Assembly (NCBI GenBank): GCA_014191975.1
Contig: BJHG01000007.1
Span: 1-45,575 of the forward strand
Source: Methylococcaceae bacterium
Lineage (GTDB): Bacteria; Pseudomonadota; Gammaproteobacteria; Methylococcales; Methylomonadaceae
Reading direction: 5' to 3'
DNA: 45,575 nt
Made by a program: the position numbers and the translations under genes. Position 1 is the stretch's first letter, and every line of letters begins with the position of its first letter. The notes beneath the pieces were generated by a model. It was given only the letters and a program-made list of their open reading frames with translations, searched no databases and had not been told where the DNA came from. Positions 226-28,788 of this stretch are shown in pieces.

Positions 226-487
226 TCAATAATGGTCAGGACATTGAGCAATCAGCAACGTGCCATGTGCCATTTTCGTAGGCATAAACCAAACGGTGCT
301 GTGCATCAATGCGTCTTGACCAAAAACCTGATAATTGATGCTTTAGCGGTTCTGGTTTTCCTAATCCCGCGAAAGATTCACGTTGAATATCTTTTATCAG
401 CGTATTGATGCGTTTTAAAATCGCACGGTCAGTGGATTGCCAATACAAATAATCTTCCCAACCTTTGCTTGAGAATTTAATTGTCAT
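226..487 (-). pseudogene. yoeB: YoeB-type mRNA interferase, frameshifted at the C-terminus
   Basis: The reading frame gives an 83-residue RelE-superfamily toxin of the YoeB type, with the catalytic-position residues Glu46 and Arg65 present (FWSRRIDAQHRLVY). YoeB normally ends in CRYHY, whose His and Tyr are needed for ribosome-dependent mRNA cleavage. Here the frame runs into VADCSMS and stops at 236. A second frame just downstream reads LLIAQCPDHY and then a stop at 226-228, which is clearly the original tail, so one frameshift near 257 removed it. The preceding gene is its YefM antitoxin. The toxin is probably inactive, unless the shift is a sequencing error. Confidence 0.8.
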
Positions 488-734
488 CTAATAATTCTCT
501 GGCAACGCCATTGTCCGCGCGCAATTCAGCAACGGATTCAAATAATCGCTGTGCGCCTGTTGGATTTCGCAATAAATAGGCTGTTTCTTCAAAACTTTCA
601 TAATCTTCCAATGACATAATTACTACTGGTTTTCTTTTTTGATGCGTGACAACGACAGGGGAATGGTCATCATTGACGGTTCGCATGATGTCAGCGAAAT
701 TTTGACGGGCATAGCTAAAAGTTAATGCGTTCAT
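477..734 (-). CDS. yefM: YefM/Phd-family antitoxin
   Basis: This 85-residue protein has the Phd/YefM fold signature: an N-terminal DNA-binding part (MNALTFSYARQNFADIM, then PVVIMSLEDYESF at about 45-57) and the acidic toxin-binding tail YLLRNP...ARELLDD. The ATG at 734 follows a CGAGG ribosome site and is preferred to the upstream ATG at 752. It overlaps the start of the YoeB-type toxin gene by 11 bp, the usual antitoxin-first order. It is expected to neutralise YoeB and repress its own operon. Since the partner toxin is frameshifted, this antitoxin may now act only as an orphan or on other YoeB copies. Confidence 0.9.
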   Translation of the reverse strand: MNALTFSYARQNFADIMRTVNDDHSPVVVTHQKRKPVVIMSLEDYESFEETAYLLRNPTGAQRLFESVAELRADNGVARELLDDN

Positions 735-748
735 GTTGTGACCTCGTT

Positions 749-850
749 TCAAAGATTTTTTAACAATTTATCGTATTCAGCGTGTGAGCCAATCCAAAAC
801 CAAACAATTGTTTGGCTGTCTTTCATTACGCCAAAATATGCTGCACTTGT
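749..850 (-). pseudogene. C-terminal fragment of an unidentified toxin-like protein
   Basis: An open frame with no proper start reads AAYFGVMKDSQTIVWFWIGS followed by HAEYDKLLKNL and a stop at 749. It resembles the end of a small toxin-type protein (FWIGSHAEYDKLL). An ATG at 826 overlaps the stop of the preceding small reading frame (TAATG), but would give only 25 residues. It is most likely a remnant of a truncated TA module. I cannot assign a family with certainty. Confidence 0.45.
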
Positions 851-22910: not shown

Positions 22911-23639
22911 TTACGGCATGAACATTCCGCCATTCACATGAAGGGTTTCACCTGTGATGTAGGCTGCTCCCTCAGATGCTAAAAAGCTCACAGCATGAGC
23001 AATTTCTTTTGCATCGCCTAAACGTGCCAACGGAATCGCGCTTAATAAATGGTTTTTGATGTCGTCGCTGAGTTCTTTTGTCATGTCGGTATCAATAAAA
23101 CCTGGCGCAACCGTGTTTACCGTGATGTTGCGTGAACCGACTTCTTTTGCCATCGATTTTGTGAAACCTATCATGCCCGCTTTCGCCGCCGCGTAATTGG
23201 CTTGACCTGCATTTCCAGTCGAACCAACGACGGACGAAATGTTGATAATACGCCCTGTTCTTGCTTTCATCATGCCGCGCAAAACCGCTTTACTCATGCG
23301 GAAAACTGACGTTAAATTGGTCGAAATAATATCGTTCCATTCGTCGTTTTTCATTCGCATCAATAAATTGTCACGGGTAATTCCTGCGTTATTGACCAAA
23401 ACGTGTGGCGTGCCAAATTCGTCCGAAATCGCTTTCATCACGCTTTCGATTGATTCAGAACTGGAAACGTCAAGCGTTAAGCCCCTGCCATTTTCGTCCA
23501 AATACGTTGAAATTGCCGCCGCGCCACTTTCAGACGTTGCCGTTCCCAAAACGAAAAAGCCGTCTTCGACTAATCTTTCCGCAATCGCGCGTCCAATTCC
23601 GCGACTTGCGCCCGTTACCAATGCGATTTGTTTAGTCAT
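22911..23639 (-). CDS. fabG: 3-oxoacyl-ACP reductase
   Basis: This 242-residue short-chain dehydrogenase has NADP binding in TGASRGIGRAIA (9-20), NNAG at 83-86, and catalytic Ser136, Tyr149 and Lys153 (ISSVVGSTGNAGQANYAAAK). It reduces 3-oxoacyl-ACP. It overlaps the end of fabD by 8 bp. Confidence 0.96.
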   Translation of the reverse strand: MTKQIALVTGASRGIGRAIAERLVEDGFFVLGTATSESGAAAISTYLDENGRGLTLDVSSSESIESVMKAISDEFGTPHVLVNNAGITRDNLLMRMKNDEWNDIISTNLTSVFRMSKAVLRGMMKARTGRIINISSVVGSTGNAGQANYAAAKAGMIGFTKSMAKEVGSRNITVNTVAPGFIDTDMTKELSDDIKNHLLSAIPLARLGDAKEIAHAVSFLASEGAAYITGETLHVNGGMFMP

Positions 23640-24585
23640 TGAGTTGCTCCATTACGTTGTTCATTGTTTTTGTATCGTAAAGCGTGAAATGTTCGGCATC
23701 TTTGGCGATACGTTTATTTAGTCCGATTAACACTTTCCCCGCCCCACATTCCACAAAGCTTGTCACGCCTTGATCTGCCATAAATTTAATCGTATCCACC
23801 CAGCGTACAGGTTTATAAAGTTGTTCTTTGAGCGCGTGACGAATCAGCTCAGGCGATTGGTGCAAAAGCACGTCAACGTTGTGAATTAGCGTCACGCTTG
23901 GCGCGTGAATCGTGATATTTTCGAGGGCTTCGGCTAATTTTTCCGCAGCGGGCAACATCAACGCGCAATGTGATGGCACGCTCACAGGCAATAAAAGCGC
24001 ACGTTTTGCACCCGCTTCTTTTGCGCCAATCATGGCGCGTTCAACAGCGGCTTTATGTCCTGCAATCACGACTTGACCTTGCGAATTAAAATTCACCGCT
24101 GAAACGACTTCATTTTTTGCGGCTTCGGCGCAAACTTTAACGACTTCATGGTCGTCCAAACCCAAAATTGCTGCCATCGCGCCAACGCCTTCGGGAACAG
24201 CTTGTTGCATCAATTCACCACGCAACGCGACAAGTTTTATCGCATCTTCAAAATCCAACGCACCCGCGCAAACTAACGCGCTGTATTCGCCCAAACTGTG
24301 TCCCGCCATCCATGACGGACGAACTGCACTGTGTTTTGTCCATACATTCCAAACCGCTACGCCTGTTGCAAGCATTGCTGGTTGTGTGTTGTGCGTTTGA
24401 TTTAATTCTGCGTTTAACGCTTCGTCAGTGACTAATGCCCACAAATCTTTTTGCAATGCGTCCGAAGCACGTTCAAACGTCTGTTTTATTTCAGGATACG
24501 TTGCCGCTAAATCGCCTAGCATTCCTGTTGATTGCGAGCCTTGTCCAGGAAAAACGAAGGCTAAATTTTGTGTTTGTTCTGTCAT
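23632..24585 (-). CDS. fabD: Malonyl-CoA:ACP transacylase
   Basis: This 317-residue transacylase has FVFPGQGSQSTGML, the catalytic Ser97 in [11 protein letters not shown] and the partner His in VPSHCALM. It makes malonyl-ACP. In most relatives fabH lies directly upstream; here about 3.2 kb of TA genes and a diverged partial copy of fabD itself intervene. Its transcription therefore must come through or from the island. Confidence 0.96.
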   Translation of the reverse strand: MTEQTQNLAFVFPGQGSQSTGMLGDLAATYPEIKQTFERASDALQKDLWALVTDEALNAELNQTHNTQPAMLATGVAVWNVWTKHSAVRPSWMAGHSLGEYSALVCAGALDFEDAIKLVALRGELMQQAVPEGVGAMAAILGLDDHEVVKVCAEAAKNEVVSAVNFNSQGQVVIAGHKAAVERAMIGAKEAGAKRALLLPVSVPSHCALMLPAAEKLAEALENITIHAPSVTLIHNVDVLLHQSPELIRHALKEQLYKPVRWVDTIKFMADQGVTSFVECGAGKVLIGLNKRIAKDAEHFTLYDTKTMNNVMEQLND

Positions 24586-24619
24586 ATTTTAATATTTTTA
24601 GAAAAGGAATAAAGCTAAA

Positions 24620-25030
24620 TTACCGAATAATTGCCCACAATTCATCAGGCGTATAGATTGGCAAGTTTACGGTTTTAAAATCTTTGCCATTGCGCGTCAC
24701 AACACCATCGACAGCGACACAATAACCTGCGTGATATAAAACGGCATCTTCAAAATCACTAAAATCAGAATTAAGAGCCAATTTCAAAACAACTTGATTC
24801 ACGTCAGCAATTGAAAATAATTCCAACAAACCTGAAATTGCCGTTTTTGCTGCCGCTCTACCAATTGATTTTGTCGCTAAATAATCCACTGTTGTGTTGG
24901 TTGTCGCACACAAATAACCTTGAATTTTTCGTTTTTCGACCGCAGCAAATAATTCAACCGCCACTTCAGAATAAGGCGCACGATTTAGCAACACATCAAG
25001 TACGACATTGGTATCAAACAAAATTTTCAA
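24620..25030 (-). CDS. PIN-domain toxin (VapC-like)
   Basis: This 136-residue PIN ribonuclease begins MKILFDTNVVLDVLLNRAPY with acidic Asp6. The central acidic pair lies in SDFEDAVLYHAG (Glu94/Asp95), and VVTRNGKDF supplies the terminal Asp117. PIN toxins cut tRNA or rRNA. The start overlaps the antitoxin stop by 4 bp. It looks intact and is the last gene of the TA island before fabD. Confidence 0.88.
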   Translation of the reverse strand: MKILFDTNVVLDVLLNRAPYSEVAVELFAAVEKRKIQGYLCATTNTTVDYLATKSIGRAAAKTAISGLLELFSIADVNQVVLKLALNSDFSDFEDAVLYHAGYCVAVDGVVTRNGKDFKTVNLPIYTPDELWAIIR

Positions 25031-25239
25031 AGGTGCTTGCTCTCTAAATACTTTTTGTAATCCGCTTCATTACAATTCGATTTCGACAACAAACCCACTA
25101 ACGATTGTGTTATCGGTGTTTGTGTTGTCTGTTCTTCTAACAGCAACTTTTCAATCGCTCGTTGCACAAATTGCTGAACATTCACACGTTGTAAAATCCG
25201 TTGCCCCAGTTCGTCGGGTAATTCAAACGCTAATTGCAT
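25027..25239 (-). CDS. VapB-like antitoxin
   Basis: This 70-residue protein has an N-terminal strand/helix part (MQLAFELPDELGQRILQRV). Its C-terminal tail LVGLLSKSNCNEADYKKYLE is typical of antitoxins of PIN toxins (G-L-L...DY..YL..K). The ATG at 25239 follows GGAGG in the leader shared by the other island antitoxins. Confidence 0.75.
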   Translation of the reverse strand: MQLAFELPDELGQRILQRVNVQQFVQRAIEKLLLEEQTTQTPITQSLVGLLSKSNCNEADYKKYLESKHL

Positions 25240-25264
25240 CAATACCTCCAAAAATCAAAAATCA

Positions 25265-25437
25265 CTCAATAATGATACCGACATTGAACAATGATTAGAC
25301 TGTCATCAGCAAACGTATAAACCAACCGATGCTCATCATCAATGTGACTTGACCAAAAACCACTAAACTCATATTTCAACGGTTCAGATTTGCCAATGCC
25401 TTCAATATGAATTTCGTTGAATATCTTTAATCAACAA
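25265..25437 (-). pseudogene. 3' remnant of a yoeB toxin gene
   Basis: This 173-bp stretch matches 26855-27026, the C-terminal two thirds of the intact YoeB gene, with roughly 15% differences and one inserted base near 25408. It keeps the coding for [10 protein letters not shown], then [12 protein letters not shown] and the CRYHY tail. Its 5' end is fused to a fabD fragment at a CAAACTAACGCG stretch. Confidence 0.85.
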
Positions 25438-25752
25438 ACTAACGCGCTGTATTCGCCTAAACTGTGTCCCGCCATCCATGACGGACAAATTGCACTGTGT
25501 TTTGTCCACACATTCCAAACTGCAACGCCAGCGGCAAGCATGGCAGGTTGTGTGTTGTGACTTTAGATTTAATTCGGTTGCCAACGTTTCGTCGGTGACT
25601 AATGCCCACAAATCTTTTTGCAACGCCTCCGAAGCACGTTCAAACGTTTGTTTAATTTCGGGATATGTCGCCGCTAAATCGTTCACCATTCCTGTTGATT
25701 GCGAACCTTCTCCAGGAAAAACGAAAGCTAAGTTATAAGTTTGTTCTGTCAT
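25435..25752 (-). pseudogene. Diverged 5' third of fabD, partial duplication
   Basis: It begins MTEQTYNLAFVFPGEGSQST, against MTEQTQNLAFVFPGQGSQST in intact fabD, and matches 24269-24585 for about 318 bp. Many differences fall in third codon positions, and the active-site Gln of GQGS has become Glu. A frameshift occurs after about codon 62 (near 25565). Similarity ends inside GEYSALV, where it is fused to a yoeB remnant. It is non-functional. The pattern suggests the copy came from a diverged fabD, through transfer or an old duplication, rather than a fresh copying event. Confidence 0.88.
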
Positions 25753-25844
25753 TTTTAAAAAGTTTTAAAGTAAAAATATAAAAATTGAATTGGGGCAAAA
25801 AACTAACAAAATGTTTCAGAAGCGGCGACGGGGGTCGCCATCAT

Positions 25845-26288
25845 TTATTGATGAAATACAGGAACATGTATTTTGTATACATTATTTTCATAAATTTCAA
25901 TGCTGCCACTAATTGCGCCTGATGTAACCTGTCCACGATAAAAGAATTTTTTAAATCCTTTTCCCATATCATTAATCCTCGCTGGATGTCCTAAAATAGA
26001 TTCGACCTCAGCTTCTGACATCCCTTCTTTAATTTGCAGCCAAGATTTTCGATGCTTCCAACCTGTTTGTGGGTCTATTTTTTCTTCATTATGAGCAGAT
26101 TCTGTTTTCGATTTAGGATGTTTTTCTAAACGCCCCACTCGATCTTCTAAGTCAGCAATCACACTTTTCAAATAACCTATTTCTTCTGAAATGGATTTTT
26201 CTATAATTTCTTCATGTCCTGCAAAAGCAGCATTTTGCGTGGCAAAAAATAAAATGCCGCTGATGATAATTTTTGTTTTTTTCTTCAT
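25845..26288 (-). CDS. Secreted protein with coiled coil and BamE/SmpA-like motif
   Basis: This 147-residue protein starts at ATG 26288 with a signal peptide (KKKTKIIISGILFFATQNAAFA). A heptad-like coiled coil follows (about 28-58, SEEIGYLKSVIADLEDRVGR). Then comes a domain with WLQIKEGMSEAEVESILGHP, the W..I..GM...EV...LG.P pattern of SmpA/OmlA (BamE)-like folds. It is probably periplasmic. The family is not further recognised, and it does not belong to the TA genes around it. The longer frame upstream has no conserved sequence. Confidence 0.7.
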   Translation of the reverse strand: MKKKTKIIISGILFFATQNAAFAGHEEIIEKSISEEIGYLKSVIADLEDRVGRLEKHPKSKTESAHNEEKIDPQTGWKHRKSWLQIKEGMSEAEVESILGHPARINDMGKGFKKFFYRGQVTSGAISGSIEIYENNVYKIHVPVFHQ

Positions 26289-26323
26289 AAAGTTATTCTC
26301 ATTTTTGATTACAAGTAGTGCGC

Positions 26324-26378
26324 TTATGTGTAGTAGCCAATTATGTTCATCGTAAAACCTCCAAAAAATCAAAATTCC
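26324..26378 (-). other. Orphan TA-type leader with an 8-codon frame
   Basis: 26353-26378 repeats the leader found before three antitoxin genes (minus strand GGAATTTTGATTTTTTGGAG then GTTTT). It is followed by ATG at 26350, which opens only MNIIGYYT and stops at 26324. It is probably the stump of an antitoxin gene lost by deletion. Confidence 0.4.
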
Positions 26379-26382
26379 GAAA

Positions 26383-26634
26383 TCAACGTGTTTTATAGCT
26401 TTCTTGGCGATGTAAAACTCGACCAATTAAAATTTTATCGCCTTCAACATCAAACAAAATTCGATAATCACCAATACGCTGACGATAAGCGGGTTCAAAT
26501 TGCGTGAGTTTTTTCACTTGTCTGACATTCGGAAAATTAACCAGTTCGCTAATCGTATTATGAATGTGGACTTTTGCGGCATTCGGAATGGCTTTTAAAT
26601 CTTTTACCGCCGACTTTTTTAATTCAATCTGCAT
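26383..26634 (-). CDS. RelE/ParE-family toxin
   Basis: This 83-residue toxin (MQIELKKSAVKDLKAIPNAA, then YRQRIGDYRILFDVEGDKI and VLHRQESYK) matches RelE mRNA interferases: the R-x-R-x-GDYR-I-x-Y/F-x core followed by V-x-H-R-x-x-x-Y. It overlaps the end of the DUF2281-type antitoxin gene by 11 bp. It looks intact. Confidence 0.9.
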   Translation of the reverse strand: MQIELKKSAVKDLKAIPNAAKVHIHNTISELVNFPNVRQVKKLTQFEPAYRQRIGDYRILFDVEGDKILIGRVLHRQESYKTR

Positions 26635-26818
26635 TTTTCAAATAATCAGCAAATGAAATCGTTGGTTCATCACGAGTTTCACGCAACAAACGTAAATCGT
26701 CCAAATCCTCTTGCTCGGTTTTTGCTTGATATTTCTGCAACAAAAACTGATAAAAATCCCATAATTCAACTTGAGCAAAATCGGGCAAGTTTTCTAATTC
26801 AATCGCGTGAGTATTCAT
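26624..26818 (-). CDS. DUF2281-like antitoxin paired with RelE
   Basis: This 64-residue protein has an N-terminal part MNTHAIELENLPDFAQVELW followed by DFYQFLLQKYQAK, of the DUF2281 kind. Its acidic tail (DLDDLRLLRETRDEPTISF then ADYLKNAD) is typical of RelE-partner antitoxins. The first 37 codons and the leader lie in the 139-bp direct repeat shared with the gene at 27104. ATG at 26818 follows GGAGG. It is coupled to relE. Confidence 0.8.
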   Translation of the reverse strand: MNTHAIELENLPDFAQVELWDFYQFLLQKYQAKTEQEDLDDLRLLRETRDEPTISFADYLKNAD

Positions 26819-26848
26819 TTTCAAACCTCCAAAAAATCAAAATTTCAA
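26710..26848. repeat. 139-bp direct repeat, copy 1 (antitoxin 5' half plus leader)
   Basis: It matches 27217-27355 with only a handful of mismatches. It contains the leader, ribosome site and first ~36 codons of the RelE-paired antitoxin. Such a repeat 507 bp apart allows recombination that swaps antitoxin tails. Confidence 0.85.
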
Positions 26849-26855
26849 CACCTGC

Positions 26856-27107
26856 TCAATAATGATACCGACATTGAACAATAATTAAATTGTCGTCAAT
26901 AAATGTATAAACTAACCGATGTTCGTCATCAATTCGACGTGACCAAAAACCACTAAATTCATATTTCAACGGTTCAGGTTTGCCAATACCTTCAAATGGA
27001 TTTCGTTGAATATCTTTAATCAACAAGTTGATGCGCTTATGAATGGCTTTGTTCGTTTGTTGCCAAAATAAGTAATCATCCCAAGCGCGTTCACGAAAAG
27101 AAATCAC
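26856..27107 (-). CDS. yoeB: YoeB-type mRNA interferase, intact
   Basis: This 83-residue YoeB has the catalytic set in place: Glu46 (GIGKPEPLKYEF), Arg65 ([10 protein letters not shown]) and the terminal His-Tyr of CRYHY. It binds the 70S A site and cleaves mRNA. Its 4-bp overlap with the preceding gene marks that gene as its antitoxin. A C-terminal fragment of a sister copy lies at 25265-25437, and a frameshifted distant paralogue lies at 226-487. Confidence 0.93.
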   Translation of the reverse strand: MISFRERAWDDYLFWQQTNKAIHKRINLLIKDIQRNPFEGIGKPEPLKYEFSGFWSRRIDDEHRLVYTFIDDNLIIVQCRYHY

Positions 27108-27325
27108 GCTTCGATTAACTCACGCTCAATTAAATTACGTCGTTCTGCAATTTCTTTAACTGCATCCAATAAGTCAGCGGCATTGGCTGGCGAACGTGTG
27201 AGATATTGTGTTTCTTCTTGCTCGGTTTTCGCCTGATATTTCTGCAACAAAAACTGGTAAAAATCCCACAATTCAACTTGAGCAAAATCGGGCAAGTTTT
27301 CTAATTCAATCGCGTAAGTATTCAT
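27104..27325 (-). CDS. Chimeric antitoxin: DUF2281-like head, YefM tail
   Basis: This 73-residue protein has residues 1-37 (MNTYAIELENLPDFAQVELW... to TEQE) almost identical to the RelE-paired antitoxin at 26624-26818. Residues 38-73 (ETQYLTRSPANAADLLDAVK then EIAERRNLIERELIEA) instead align with the toxin-binding tail of YefM (compare ETAYLLRNPTGAQRLFESVA at 477-734). The YefM DNA-binding head is missing. The gene is followed by an intact YoeB with a 4-bp overlap, so the tail should still neutralise YoeB while autoregulation is swapped. ATG 27325 has GGAGG in the shared leader. Confidence 0.8.
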   Translation of the reverse strand: MNTYAIELENLPDFAQVELWDFYQFLLQKYQAKTEQEETQYLTRSPANAADLLDAVKEIAERRNLIERELIEA

Positions 27326-27355
27326 TTTTAAACCTCCAAAAAACCAAAATTTCAA
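27217..27355. repeat. 139-bp direct repeat, copy 2 (antitoxin 5' half plus leader)
   Basis: Partner of 26710-26848. The similarity stops exactly where the antitoxin changes to a YefM-like tail, which marks the fusion point near 27216. Confidence 0.85.
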
Positions 27356-27394
27356 AACCTACAAAGCTAAATCAATCAACAAAACTACAAGTTT

Positions 27395-27784
27395 TTATTG
27401 CTTACTGGCATTGAATGAACCGCTATAAAAATTAGTTCCAACAGATTCGTACCACATTCCACTCATACTATCTTTTCCTTTGCTAACGTAAGCATCAAAA
27501 TAAGTAGTGCCTGTGCCATCAAAAGAATAGCCAACAAAATGACAACTTTTGTCGAATGACGTTATTGTGAAATCACCCGTTCCAGAAACACCATTTGCGC
27601 TTAAAGAAGTTCCAGACACTACATTTCCCTTAGCTGGAACAGTAAAAGATGTTCTAGCTGCATTTGAATAAGCCCCAGTGGAATAAGCAACCCAACTACC
27701 TGTTAAATCCGCACGAGTACAAGCTGCATTTGCAGTAGAGCCAAAAGTTAAAAGCATTGCAGCTATTAAGATGATTTTTTTCAT
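27395..27784 (-). CDS. Small secreted protein of unknown function
   Basis: This 129-residue protein has a clear signal peptide (KKIILIAAMLLTFGSTANA, cut before ACTR). The mature part is rich in Ser, Gly, Thr and aromatic residues (SWVAYSTGAYSNAARTSFTV; KDSMSGMWYESVGTNFYSG), suggesting a small beta-barrel or lipocalin-like domain. It has two cysteines that could pair. Not recognised. It sits between the TA island and fabH, 41 bp from fabH. Confidence 0.7.
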   Translation of the reverse strand: MKKIILIAAMLLTFGSTANAACTRADLTGSWVAYSTGAYSNAARTSFTVPAKGNVVSGTSLSANGVSGTGDFTITSFDKSCHFVGYSFDGTGTTYFDAYVSKGKDSMSGMWYESVGTNFYSGSFNASKQ

Positions 27785-27825
27785 TAGTTTTGTTCGTTAA
27801 AAAATAGAAAGATAAAAAGTGAAAT

Positions 27826-28788
27826 TCAATACCGAACCAACGCACTGCCCCAAGTAAATCCCGCCCCAAAGGCTTCAAGCAACACCGTTTGTCCACGTTG
27901 AATTCGACCGTCACGAACGGCTTCATTGAATGCTAATAAAACTGACGCTGACGACGTATTACCTTGTGTTTCGAGCGTCACAACCACTTGTTCCATCGAC
28001 ATTTTTAATTTTTTCGCCGTCGCCGCGATAATCCGAATGTTAGCTTGATGCGGTACGAGCCAATTAATTTCAGATTTATCCATATTGTGCGCTTCGAGCG
28101 TTTCGTCAACAATACGTCCGAGCGTATTCACTGCGACTTTAAACACCTCATTTCCACGCATCGCAATGTAGCCCAATGATTCGTCATCGCCCATCGCTTG
28201 TGGGTTTGGGCAATTTAATAAATCTTCATATTGACCATCGGAATGAATGTGCGTCGATAATACGCCGACTTCGCAGGAAGCCTGCAACAACATGGCACCT
28301 GCGCCATCACCAAATAAAATGCACGTGCCACGATCCGTCCAATCAACAATTCGTGAACACACTTCTGAACCGACGATTAACACGGTTTTTGCTGCGCCAG
28401 ATTTGATGTATTGGTCGGCGATACTTAACGCGAAAATCGAACCGCTGCAAGCCGCTTGAATATCAAACGCCACGCCGCCTGTCACGCCTAAACGATGTTG
28501 CAACAAACACGCGGTACTCGGATAAACATTGTCTGGCGTTCCCGTCGCGACAATAATTAAATCAATGTCATTCGGTTCGATTTGCGCGGCTTCAATCGCT
28601 TGACGGGCGGCAATTTCCGCCATACTCGCGGCGGTTTCATGTGCCGCAACAATGCAACGGCTCCGAATTCCCGTGCGTTCAAAAATCCACTCGTCGGACG
28701 TTTCAACACGTTCCGCGAGTTGCTGATTGGTGACGACGTTTTCAGGCAAATAACCGCCTGTTCCAATAATTTTTGTGTGACGGCTCAT
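27826..28788 (-). CDS. fabH: Beta-ketoacyl-ACP synthase III
   Basis: This 320-residue enzyme starts fatty-acid chains by condensing acetyl-CoA with malonyl-ACP. The catalytic triad is Cys114 ([12 protein letters not shown]), His247 (VPHQANIR) and Asn277 (TQGNTSSAS). It overlaps the plsX stop by 4 bp. Confidence 0.97.

What the first reader, a model, noticed from the sequence alone, without database searches (positions are those of the whole stretch)
26624..27325. Chimeric antitoxin joining a DUF2281-type head to a YefM toxin-binding tail
Two adjacent antitoxin genes share a 139-bp repeat covering their leader and first ~36 codons, then diverge abruptly. The RelE-paired one keeps its own tail. 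The YoeB-paired one carries a YefM tail (YLTRSP...ERELIE) without the YefM DNA-binding head. Neutralisation specificity follows the tail, while promoter binding follows the head, so two unrelated toxins may now be under one shared repressor type. This would be a direct snapshot of modular antitoxin evolution.
Basis: partly seen in the sequence, partly recalled or inferred. Interest (0 to 1): 0.7.

Follow-up and report, generated by a model that had tools for sequence, protein, structure and literature searches.

The report
Recently spliced antitoxin with traceable parents
A bacterium of a methane-oxidising group carries an antitoxin gene made by joining the front of one antitoxin to the back of another; both parent genes survive in sister species, so one can see how such small proteins are rebuilt, although the idea that the front part controls a shared promoter is not borne out.

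Summary
The 73-aa antitoxin at 27104-27325(-) joins a DUF2281-type head to a YefM tail, upstream of a full-length YoeB. In its genus (18 genomes) the fusion occurs in two, with one junction: the window and G204 (93% identical). Sister species keep both parents apart: DUF2281-RelE (head DNA up to 97% identical) and YefM-YoeB (tail DNA up to 90%). Several lie in the same gap after fabH. The junction has a 4-bp overlap. Chimera+yoeB is far more alike between the carriers than plsX+fabH at synonymous sites (Fisher p 7e-6), which points to lateral transfer; G204's sister G259 has an empty site. Best reading: a real, recent chimera from one recombination between tandem TA genes.

Two corrections. 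The architecture is not unique: a divergent DUF2281-head/YefM-tail antitoxin occurs in another genus of the family and in two other families of the order, so the splice seems to have arisen at least twice. And "promoter control follows the head" is unsupported: the ~24-nt leader also precedes yefM, brnT, a hicA fragment and a Phd-type gene, no YefM operator core lies near, and the head is acidic. Neutralisation of YoeB is likely but untested; no structure was obtained.

The parts
27104..27325 (-). Chimeric antitoxin, 73 aa: DUF2281-type head (about residues 1-37) joined to a YefM tail (about residues 37-73)
27213..27216 (-). Junction: 4-bp overlap AAGA shared by the DUF2281 parent (..CAAGAAGATTT..) and the YefM parent (..GGCAAGAAACA..)
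   Evidence: alignments; an overlap of 4 bp or more occurs at 2.4% of random junctions of the two genes
27330..27353 (-). Leader copy upstream of the chimera (contains GGAGG a few bases before ATG, probably the ribosome-binding site)
26856..27107 (-). YoeB toxin, 83 aa, GTG start overlapping the chimera's stop
   Evidence: Pfam YoeB_toxin E 8.9e-41, PDB 2a6q_E
26624..26818 (-). DUF2281-type antitoxin with its own tail
   Evidence: the same head and tail in 5 of 18 genus genomes
26823..26846 (-). Leader copy upstream of the DUF2281 antitoxin
26383..26634 (-). ParE/RelE-like toxin paired with the DUF2281 antitoxin
   Evidence: Pfam ParE_toxin E 9.1e-11
26324..26378 (-). Leader copy plus remnant of the start of a yefM gene after RelE (8 codons, then a stop); same order as in G154 (DUF2281-RelE-leader-yefM head)
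27395..27784 (-). 129-aa ORF upstream of the chimera; in G202 the same ORF lies upstream of a canonical yefM
25845..26288 (-). Small ORF (starts MKKKTKII), no family match above cut-off
25430..25752 (-). Partial, frameshifted second copy of the start of fabD
25269..25421 (-). 3' part of a second yoeB joined to the fabD fragment (3-bp overlap TTG)
25027..25239 (-). Putative antitoxin of the PIN toxin, named by position only; its start site resembles the leader
24620..25030 (-). PIN-domain toxin
   Evidence: Pfam PIN_3 E 5.4e-20
27826..28788 (-). fabH, upstream border of the variable site
23632..24585 (-). fabD, downstream border of the variable site

Best explanation
The gene is a recent natural antitoxin chimera. 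A DUF2281-RelE module and a yefM-yoeB module stood in tandem, probably in the gap downstream of fabH. A recombination at four shared bases (AAGA, in frame) joined codon ~37 of the DUF2281 antitoxin to the linker just before the YoeB-binding tail of YefM, removing the DUF2281 tail, RelE, the next leader and the YefM head. The product keeps the YefM segment that wraps YoeB and is predicted to neutralise the adjacent, full-length YoeB. It lacks the YefM DNA-binding head, so E. coli-style autorepression is predicted to be lost; expression probably comes from the co-directional plsX-fabH-fabD operon. The cassette then moved between species, perhaps by recombination at the shared leader on one side and the tail plus yoeB on the other. 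Shown by sequence: the fusion, both parents, the shared junction, the state of the site in sister species, the lateral signal. Inferred: the type and place of the event, neutralisation, loss of autorepression, expression from the fab operon, the route of transfer.
For: Two of 18 genus genomes carry the fusion; the other strong matches are the separate parents. Head DNA is 94.6-97.3% identical to the DUF2281 genes of G000, G154, G208 and G202 (G168: 89.2%); tail DNA is 86.8-89.6% identical to sister YefMs. The junction is identical in both carriers, with the derived GAAACACAATATC after it; an overlap of 4 bp or more is expected at 2.4% of random junctions. The tandem order DUF2281-RelE-leader-yefM start exists in G154 and, as a remnant, in the window. 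Canonical yefM-yoeB lies in the same gap in G180, G192 and G221; G259, sister of G204, has no insert there. Synonymous differences between the carriers (site counts rounded): chimera+yoeB 28 of 93, plsX+fabH 256 of 459, Fisher p 7e-6. Few amino-acid changes: chimera dN 0.029, dS 0.306. The published YefM/RelJ segment that contacts the toxin (PMC7354431, passages) maps mostly to the tail by the alignments (my extrapolation). For another pair, the neutralising tail alone fused to SUMO counteracts its toxin in vivo (PMC10440598, section 12). No minus-strand terminator-like site was found between plsX and fabD.
Against: The chimera head of G000 is less like that of G204 (94.6%) than like some DUF2281 heads (97.3%), so later conversion or a long G204 branch must be assumed. 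No genome with a complete DUF2281-RelE-yefM-yoeB tandem was seen: in G154 and the window the yefM part is a remnant. One promoter-like site lies on the minus strand inside the insert (25909-25881), downstream of the TA pairs discussed. Full-length genes can persist for a while without function.
Confidence: 0.76

Rival explanations
1. Member of an old DUF2281-head/YefM-tail antitoxin family, inherited rather than newly made.
For: Such a type exists: 8 of 8 near-full-length matches read (of 10) have a DUF2281-type head and a YefM-type tail, 6 of them with YoeB found next door (families).
Against: The window's protein is only 31-40% identical to the six of them in the alignment, while its head DNA is up to 97% identical to local DUF2281-RelE genes and its tail up to 90% to local YefMs.
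Confidence: 0.06
2. One reading: the head is a DNA-binding repressor, and the YoeB and RelE operons are co-regulated through the repeated leader.
For: Leader and head are duplicated together. Some copies share about 25 nt more upstream of the leader (visible), where an operator could lie.
Against: The leader also precedes yefM, brnT, a Phd-type gene and a hicA fragment; it includes GGAGG just before the ATG, which looks like a translation start; the head is acidic.
Confidence: 0.12
3. Direct gene conversion: leader and head of a DUF2281 gene overwrote leader and head of a yefM at the site, without a tandem deletion.
For: In the window the sequence upstream of the leader (orf129 side) resembles the orf129-yefM allele of G202, as if only leader and head had been replaced.
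Against: The tandem order needed for the deletion route exists, with a yefM remnant, in G154 and the window; the G204 allele is what a deletion would leave.
Confidence: 0.25
4. A dead fusion: the antitoxin does not work and the YoeB is silent or inactive.
For: The locus contains several broken genes (fabD fragment, yoeB 3' part, yefM start).
Against: Both genes are full-length in two species and have few amino-acid changes relative to silent ones.
Confidence: 0.12

Closest known systems
YefM-YoeB (Axe-Txe) type II toxin-antitoxin, Phd/YefM antitoxin
   Same: YoeB toxin, antitoxin gene directly upstream, same toxin-binding tail
   Different: The Phd/YefM DNA-binding head (PF02604) is absent and replaced
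DUF2281 / COG5559 antitoxins (NCBIfam TA_VapB NF050009)
   Same: Head sequence; small antitoxin beside its toxin. Partners in print: PIN/VapC toxins (PMC4963859 and PMC12654330, passages)
   Different: Tail and toxin are those of YefM-YoeB
Divergent DUF2281-head/YefM-tail antitoxins of other Methylococcales (L201-L207, L020)
   Same: Same two-part architecture; YoeB next to six of the eight read
   Different: Other sequence groups (31-40% identity where aligned); apparently an independent origin
Modular antitoxins of the NetFlax/PanA network (PMC10440598, section 12 and passages)
   Same: Exchangeable linear neutralising tails on different N-terminal domains
   Different: Other domains; there the swaps are inferred from a network of families, here the event and its parents are visible

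Membership tests
YefM antitoxin | C-terminal YoeB-binding segment (ET.YLLRSPAN...) | tested here: met
   PRK11409 E 1e-6, residues 31-72; 2a6q_A residues 29-71
YefM antitoxin | N-terminal Phd/YefM DNA-binding domain (PF02604) | tested here: not met
   No PF02604 match at E up to 1, whereas a canonical YefM of the genus (L277) gives E 3.6e-21
YefM antitoxin | Gene directly upstream of yoeB | tested here: met
YefM antitoxin | TGTACA operator core near the promoter (as described in PMC4803016, passages) | tested here: not met
   None in the window's stretch; the sister yefM alleles at this site have none within about 880 bp upstream either
DUF2281 antitoxin | PF10047 head above the curated cut-off | tested here: inconclusive
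   25.2 bits against 26.5, E 2.6e-5; neighbour 24.7 bits
DUF2281 antitoxin | Tail and partner toxin of its closest DUF2281 relatives | tested here: not met
   Tail and toxin are YefM/YoeB; the relatives keep their own tail plus a RelE-like toxin
Functional type II toxin-antitoxin pair | Antitoxin neutralises its toxin in vivo | not testable with these tools
   bench assay needed
Antitoxin autorepressor | Binds its own promoter | not testable with these tools
   indirect only: leader not head-specific, acidic head

The most novel reading that the evidence does not exclude
The gap after fabH is a toxin-antitoxin shuffling site: unrelated TA modules are strung together inside a host operon, each behind the same ~24-nt leader, which serves as ribosome-binding site and as recombination seam. 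Because the host operon supplies transcription, antitoxin heads are freed from their repressor role and can be exchanged, so working antitoxins with new heads arise and spread between species.
Probability: 0.25. Interest if true: 0.7.

Novelty: new variant of a known kind. Interest (0 to 1): 0.52.

Why it matters
That antitoxins are modular and swap partners is accepted, but mostly deduced from old combinations; the proposed step, a neutralising tail joined to a new head, has been shown by engineering (PMC10440598, section 12). Here the step can be read directly: parents, junction, a site without insert and a sign of transfer are visible among sister species, and the same head-tail combination seems to have arisen at least twice. 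It offers a natural pair with which to ask whether an antitoxin needs its DNA-binding head at all and whether neutralisation follows the tail alone.

Tried and rejected
Rejected: derivation from the adjacent DUF2281 copy by simple local duplication (head closer to G154's gene); a head-specific leader. No phage or plasmid carrier was found: no match for the chimera (viral contigs; plasmids; phages); the divergent type gave only tail matches in 7 plasmid records, none, and one search gave one locus, a canonical Phd/YefM. No Rfam family or tRNA in the window. No excess of promoter-like sites (8 found, 13.0 expected). PADLOC: one weak hit, E 0.0073, to the PIN protein. No convincing solved relative of the DUF2281 antitoxin (one hit, E 7.2). 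Wider searches: in 369 class genomes 7 had a match to the chimera and only the own genome a full-length one; in 398 phylum genomes 8 had a match to the L206 antitoxin, none full-length, the longest being the window's own chimera, residues 15-75.

The survey of YoeB partners was taken roughly in the order of the tool's lists, not at random, and classified by head and tail profiles built in the script from the same sequences. Phylum: 60 of 72 non-own hits fetched (12 dropped: 3 with stops inside, the others partial or weak); 59 of 60 have a Phd/YefM head (54 with the YefM-type tail, 5 with another tail), 1 had no candidate. Family: 66 loci taken from the 138 genomes with a hit, 66 of 66 head plus tail. 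Of six further loci from the genus (L272-L277) three are head plus tail, two have other heads (L273, L275), and in one no YoeB was found by the script (L276). Near-full-length matches: 10, of which 8 were read; G012 and G018 were not. L208 (head-only match) had no YoeB.

Full report
What is there. The window lies in a genome of the order Methylococcales, judged by the titles of its nearest named relatives. On the minus strand, between fabH (27826-28788) and fabD (23632-24585), lie in order: a 129-aa ORF, the chimeric antitoxin, YoeB, the DUF2281 antitoxin, a RelE-like toxin, a remnant of a yefM start, a small ORF, a broken copy of the start of fabD joined to the 3' part of a second yoeB, and a small gene with a PIN toxin. 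All point the same way as the fab genes. The chimera's two parts are clear: DUF2281-type head (just below Pfam's cut-off) and YefM tail, with a full-length YoeB behind it. The 148-nt repeat at 94% is real.

Is it a local recent fusion? In 301 genomes of the order 114 have some match to the chimera at E up to 0.01, but only two match end to end at 93% or more: the window and G204 (the same contig as L036). In the genus (18 genomes, 9 with a match at E up to 0.001) five have the DUF2281 antitoxin with its own tail (tails) and four have YefM with a tail at least 76% identical. At DNA level the window's head is 97.3, 96.4, 96.4, 94.6 and 89.2% identical to the DUF2281 genes of G154, G208, G202, the window itself and G168, and its tail 86.8-89.6% to the YefMs of four sister genomes. 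Aligned, the chimera follows the DUF2281 gene through CAAGAAGA and the yefM gene from AAGAAACA on, an overlap of four bases, AAGA, in frame. An overlap of four or more occurs at 2.4% of all junctions of these two genes. Both carriers share the junction and the derived bases after it, so one event is the simplest reading. Against it stands that G000's head is closer to some DUF2281 genes than to G204's head (94.6%), which needs later conversion or a long branch.

Where it happened. fabH was found in 17 of 18 genus genomes, and the stretch after it was looked at in all 17: canonical yefM-yoeB in three (G180, G192, G221), orf129-yefM with a broken yoeB in one (G202), DUF2281-RelE in two (G154, G208), the chimera in two, about 60 bp and then fabD in four (G151, G232, G261, G272), about 60 bp and then ccmH in one (G259), other small genes before fabD in two (G168, G224), and other small genes cut off by the contig end in two (G273, G286). 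In G154 the order is DUF2281-RelE-leader-yefM head, and the window keeps the same leader and yefM start after RelE. A deletion in such a tandem array would give the chimera directly; a complete tandem with yoeB was not seen. Gene conversion of leader and head is the main alternative.

How it spread. Between the window and G204, plsX and fabH differ at 256 of 459 synonymous sites, chimera plus yoeB at 28 of 93 (rounded; Fisher p 7e-6). Separately dS is 0.855 for fabH, 0.47 for yoeB and 0.306 for the chimera. G259, whose fabH is 91.5% identical to G204's, has ccmH about 60 bp after fabH, where G204 has an ORF, the chimera, yoeB and then ccmH. The cassette therefore seems to have moved laterally.

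Is the architecture unique? No. Ten further matches run nearly the length of the chimera at 33-42% identity. I read eight (L201-L205, L206, L207, L020): all eight have a DUF2281-type head and a YefM-type tail, and six have a YoeB next to them. For L205 the script found no YoeB in the stretch held, and L020 was not scanned for one. They lie in another genus of the window's own family (g3) and in two other families of the order (f4, f6). Pfam gives DUF2281 for the L201 protein (E 5.2e-7, above cut-off), L206 (3.7e-4) and L020 (8.1e-5), the last two below cut-off; NCBIfam gives YefM for the tails of the first two (3.7e-7, 1.9e-7). The six in the alignment are 31-40% identical to the chimera, so they look like an older, separate case. 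In the general run of YoeB loci the head is Phd/YefM: 59 of 60 in the phylum sample (one without a candidate) and 66 of 66 in the family sample. The DUF2281-type head, in turn, goes with other tails and toxins: RelE-like here, PIN in L026, PemK in the own genome (L052; that head scores below Pfam's cut-off). Two divergent YoeB genes in the genus have other heads, by weak matches, on a second tail type (L273, L275).

The leader. GAAATTTTGATTTTYTGGAGGTTT with up to two mismatches occurs 15 times in 8 of 18 genomes, against none for the reversed control. With a shorter pattern there are 20 hits in 10 genomes against 2 in the control. Of these 20, fifteen precede the start of a TA gene or TA remnant (4 DUF2281, 2 chimera, 6 yefM of which two are remnants and one is cut by a contig end, brnT, a hicA fragment, a Phd-type antitoxin), one precedes a 9-codon ORF, and four are unrelated (families of the last three). 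The gene before the window's PIN toxin has a similar start, not caught by the pattern. The leader is thus common to several TA modules of this genus and not tied to the DUF2281 head. It holds GGAGG a few bases before the ATG, which fits translation initiation. Some copies share about 25 nt more upstream (visible), so a regulatory site there cannot be excluded. No TGTACA, the core of the YefM operator (PMC4803016, passages), lies within about 880 bp upstream of the yefM alleles at this site, and R10 and R31, reported there as essential for DNA binding, belong to the head that the chimera lacks.

Mechanism. The published YefM/RelJ segment that contacts the toxin (PMC7354431, passages) falls mostly in the chimera's tail when carried over by the alignments; this mapping is my inference. 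A neutralising tail alone on an unrelated carrier was enough for another TA pair (PMC10440598, section 12). So neutralisation of YoeB by the tail is likely. The head is acidic and has no convincing solved relative; I take it, as a guess, for a dimerising or stabilising cap and not a repressor. With no minus-strand terminator-like site between plsX and fabD, transcription from the fab operon is the simplest supply; that too is inferred.

Literature. Searches: DUF2281 and antitoxin: 3 papers; COG5559 and antitoxin: 1. In the passages I saw, DUF2281 antitoxins are paired with PIN/VapC toxins (PMC4963859; PMC12654330, which reports one such pair neutralising in E. coli), and I saw no DUF2281-YefM chimera described. 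PMC2701414 was seen in passages, PMC5105189 only in a listing. Most subscription papers and preprints are not in this library.

Verdict. Function and structure remain to be tested.

Noticed in passing
window 236-752 (-): A canonical YefM with a YoeB whose C-terminus departs from the usual CRYHY end (reads VADCSMS), so the toxin is probably inactive.
   Followed up: partly
window 25269-25752 (-): A frameshifted copy of the first third of fabD joined to the 3' part of a second yoeB (3-bp overlap TTG): looks like a tandem duplication of the yoeB-fabD stretch that later decayed.
   Followed up: partly
window 23632-28788 and L090-L105: The gap after fabH differs between species of the genus: TA modules or other small genes in 12 of 17 genomes, no insert in 5. 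A chromosomal hotspot inside a fatty-acid operon; I did not look for an integrase.
   Followed up: partly
L094 (G154), YefM remnant before fabD: A 59-aa ORF with a YefM head but without the YoeB-binding tail, followed by fabD and no toxin: the reverse of the chimera.
   Followed up: partly
L273 262-498 (-), L275 223-462 (+): Antitoxins beside divergent YoeB genes with VapB15-like or RelN-like heads (weak matches) and a second tail type otherwise seen on Phd heads (L196-L200): possibly another case of head exchange.
   Followed up: partly
L052 (own genome contig C19): Another DUF2281-like antitoxin (below Pfam's cut-off), followed by a PemK-like toxin.
   Followed up: partly
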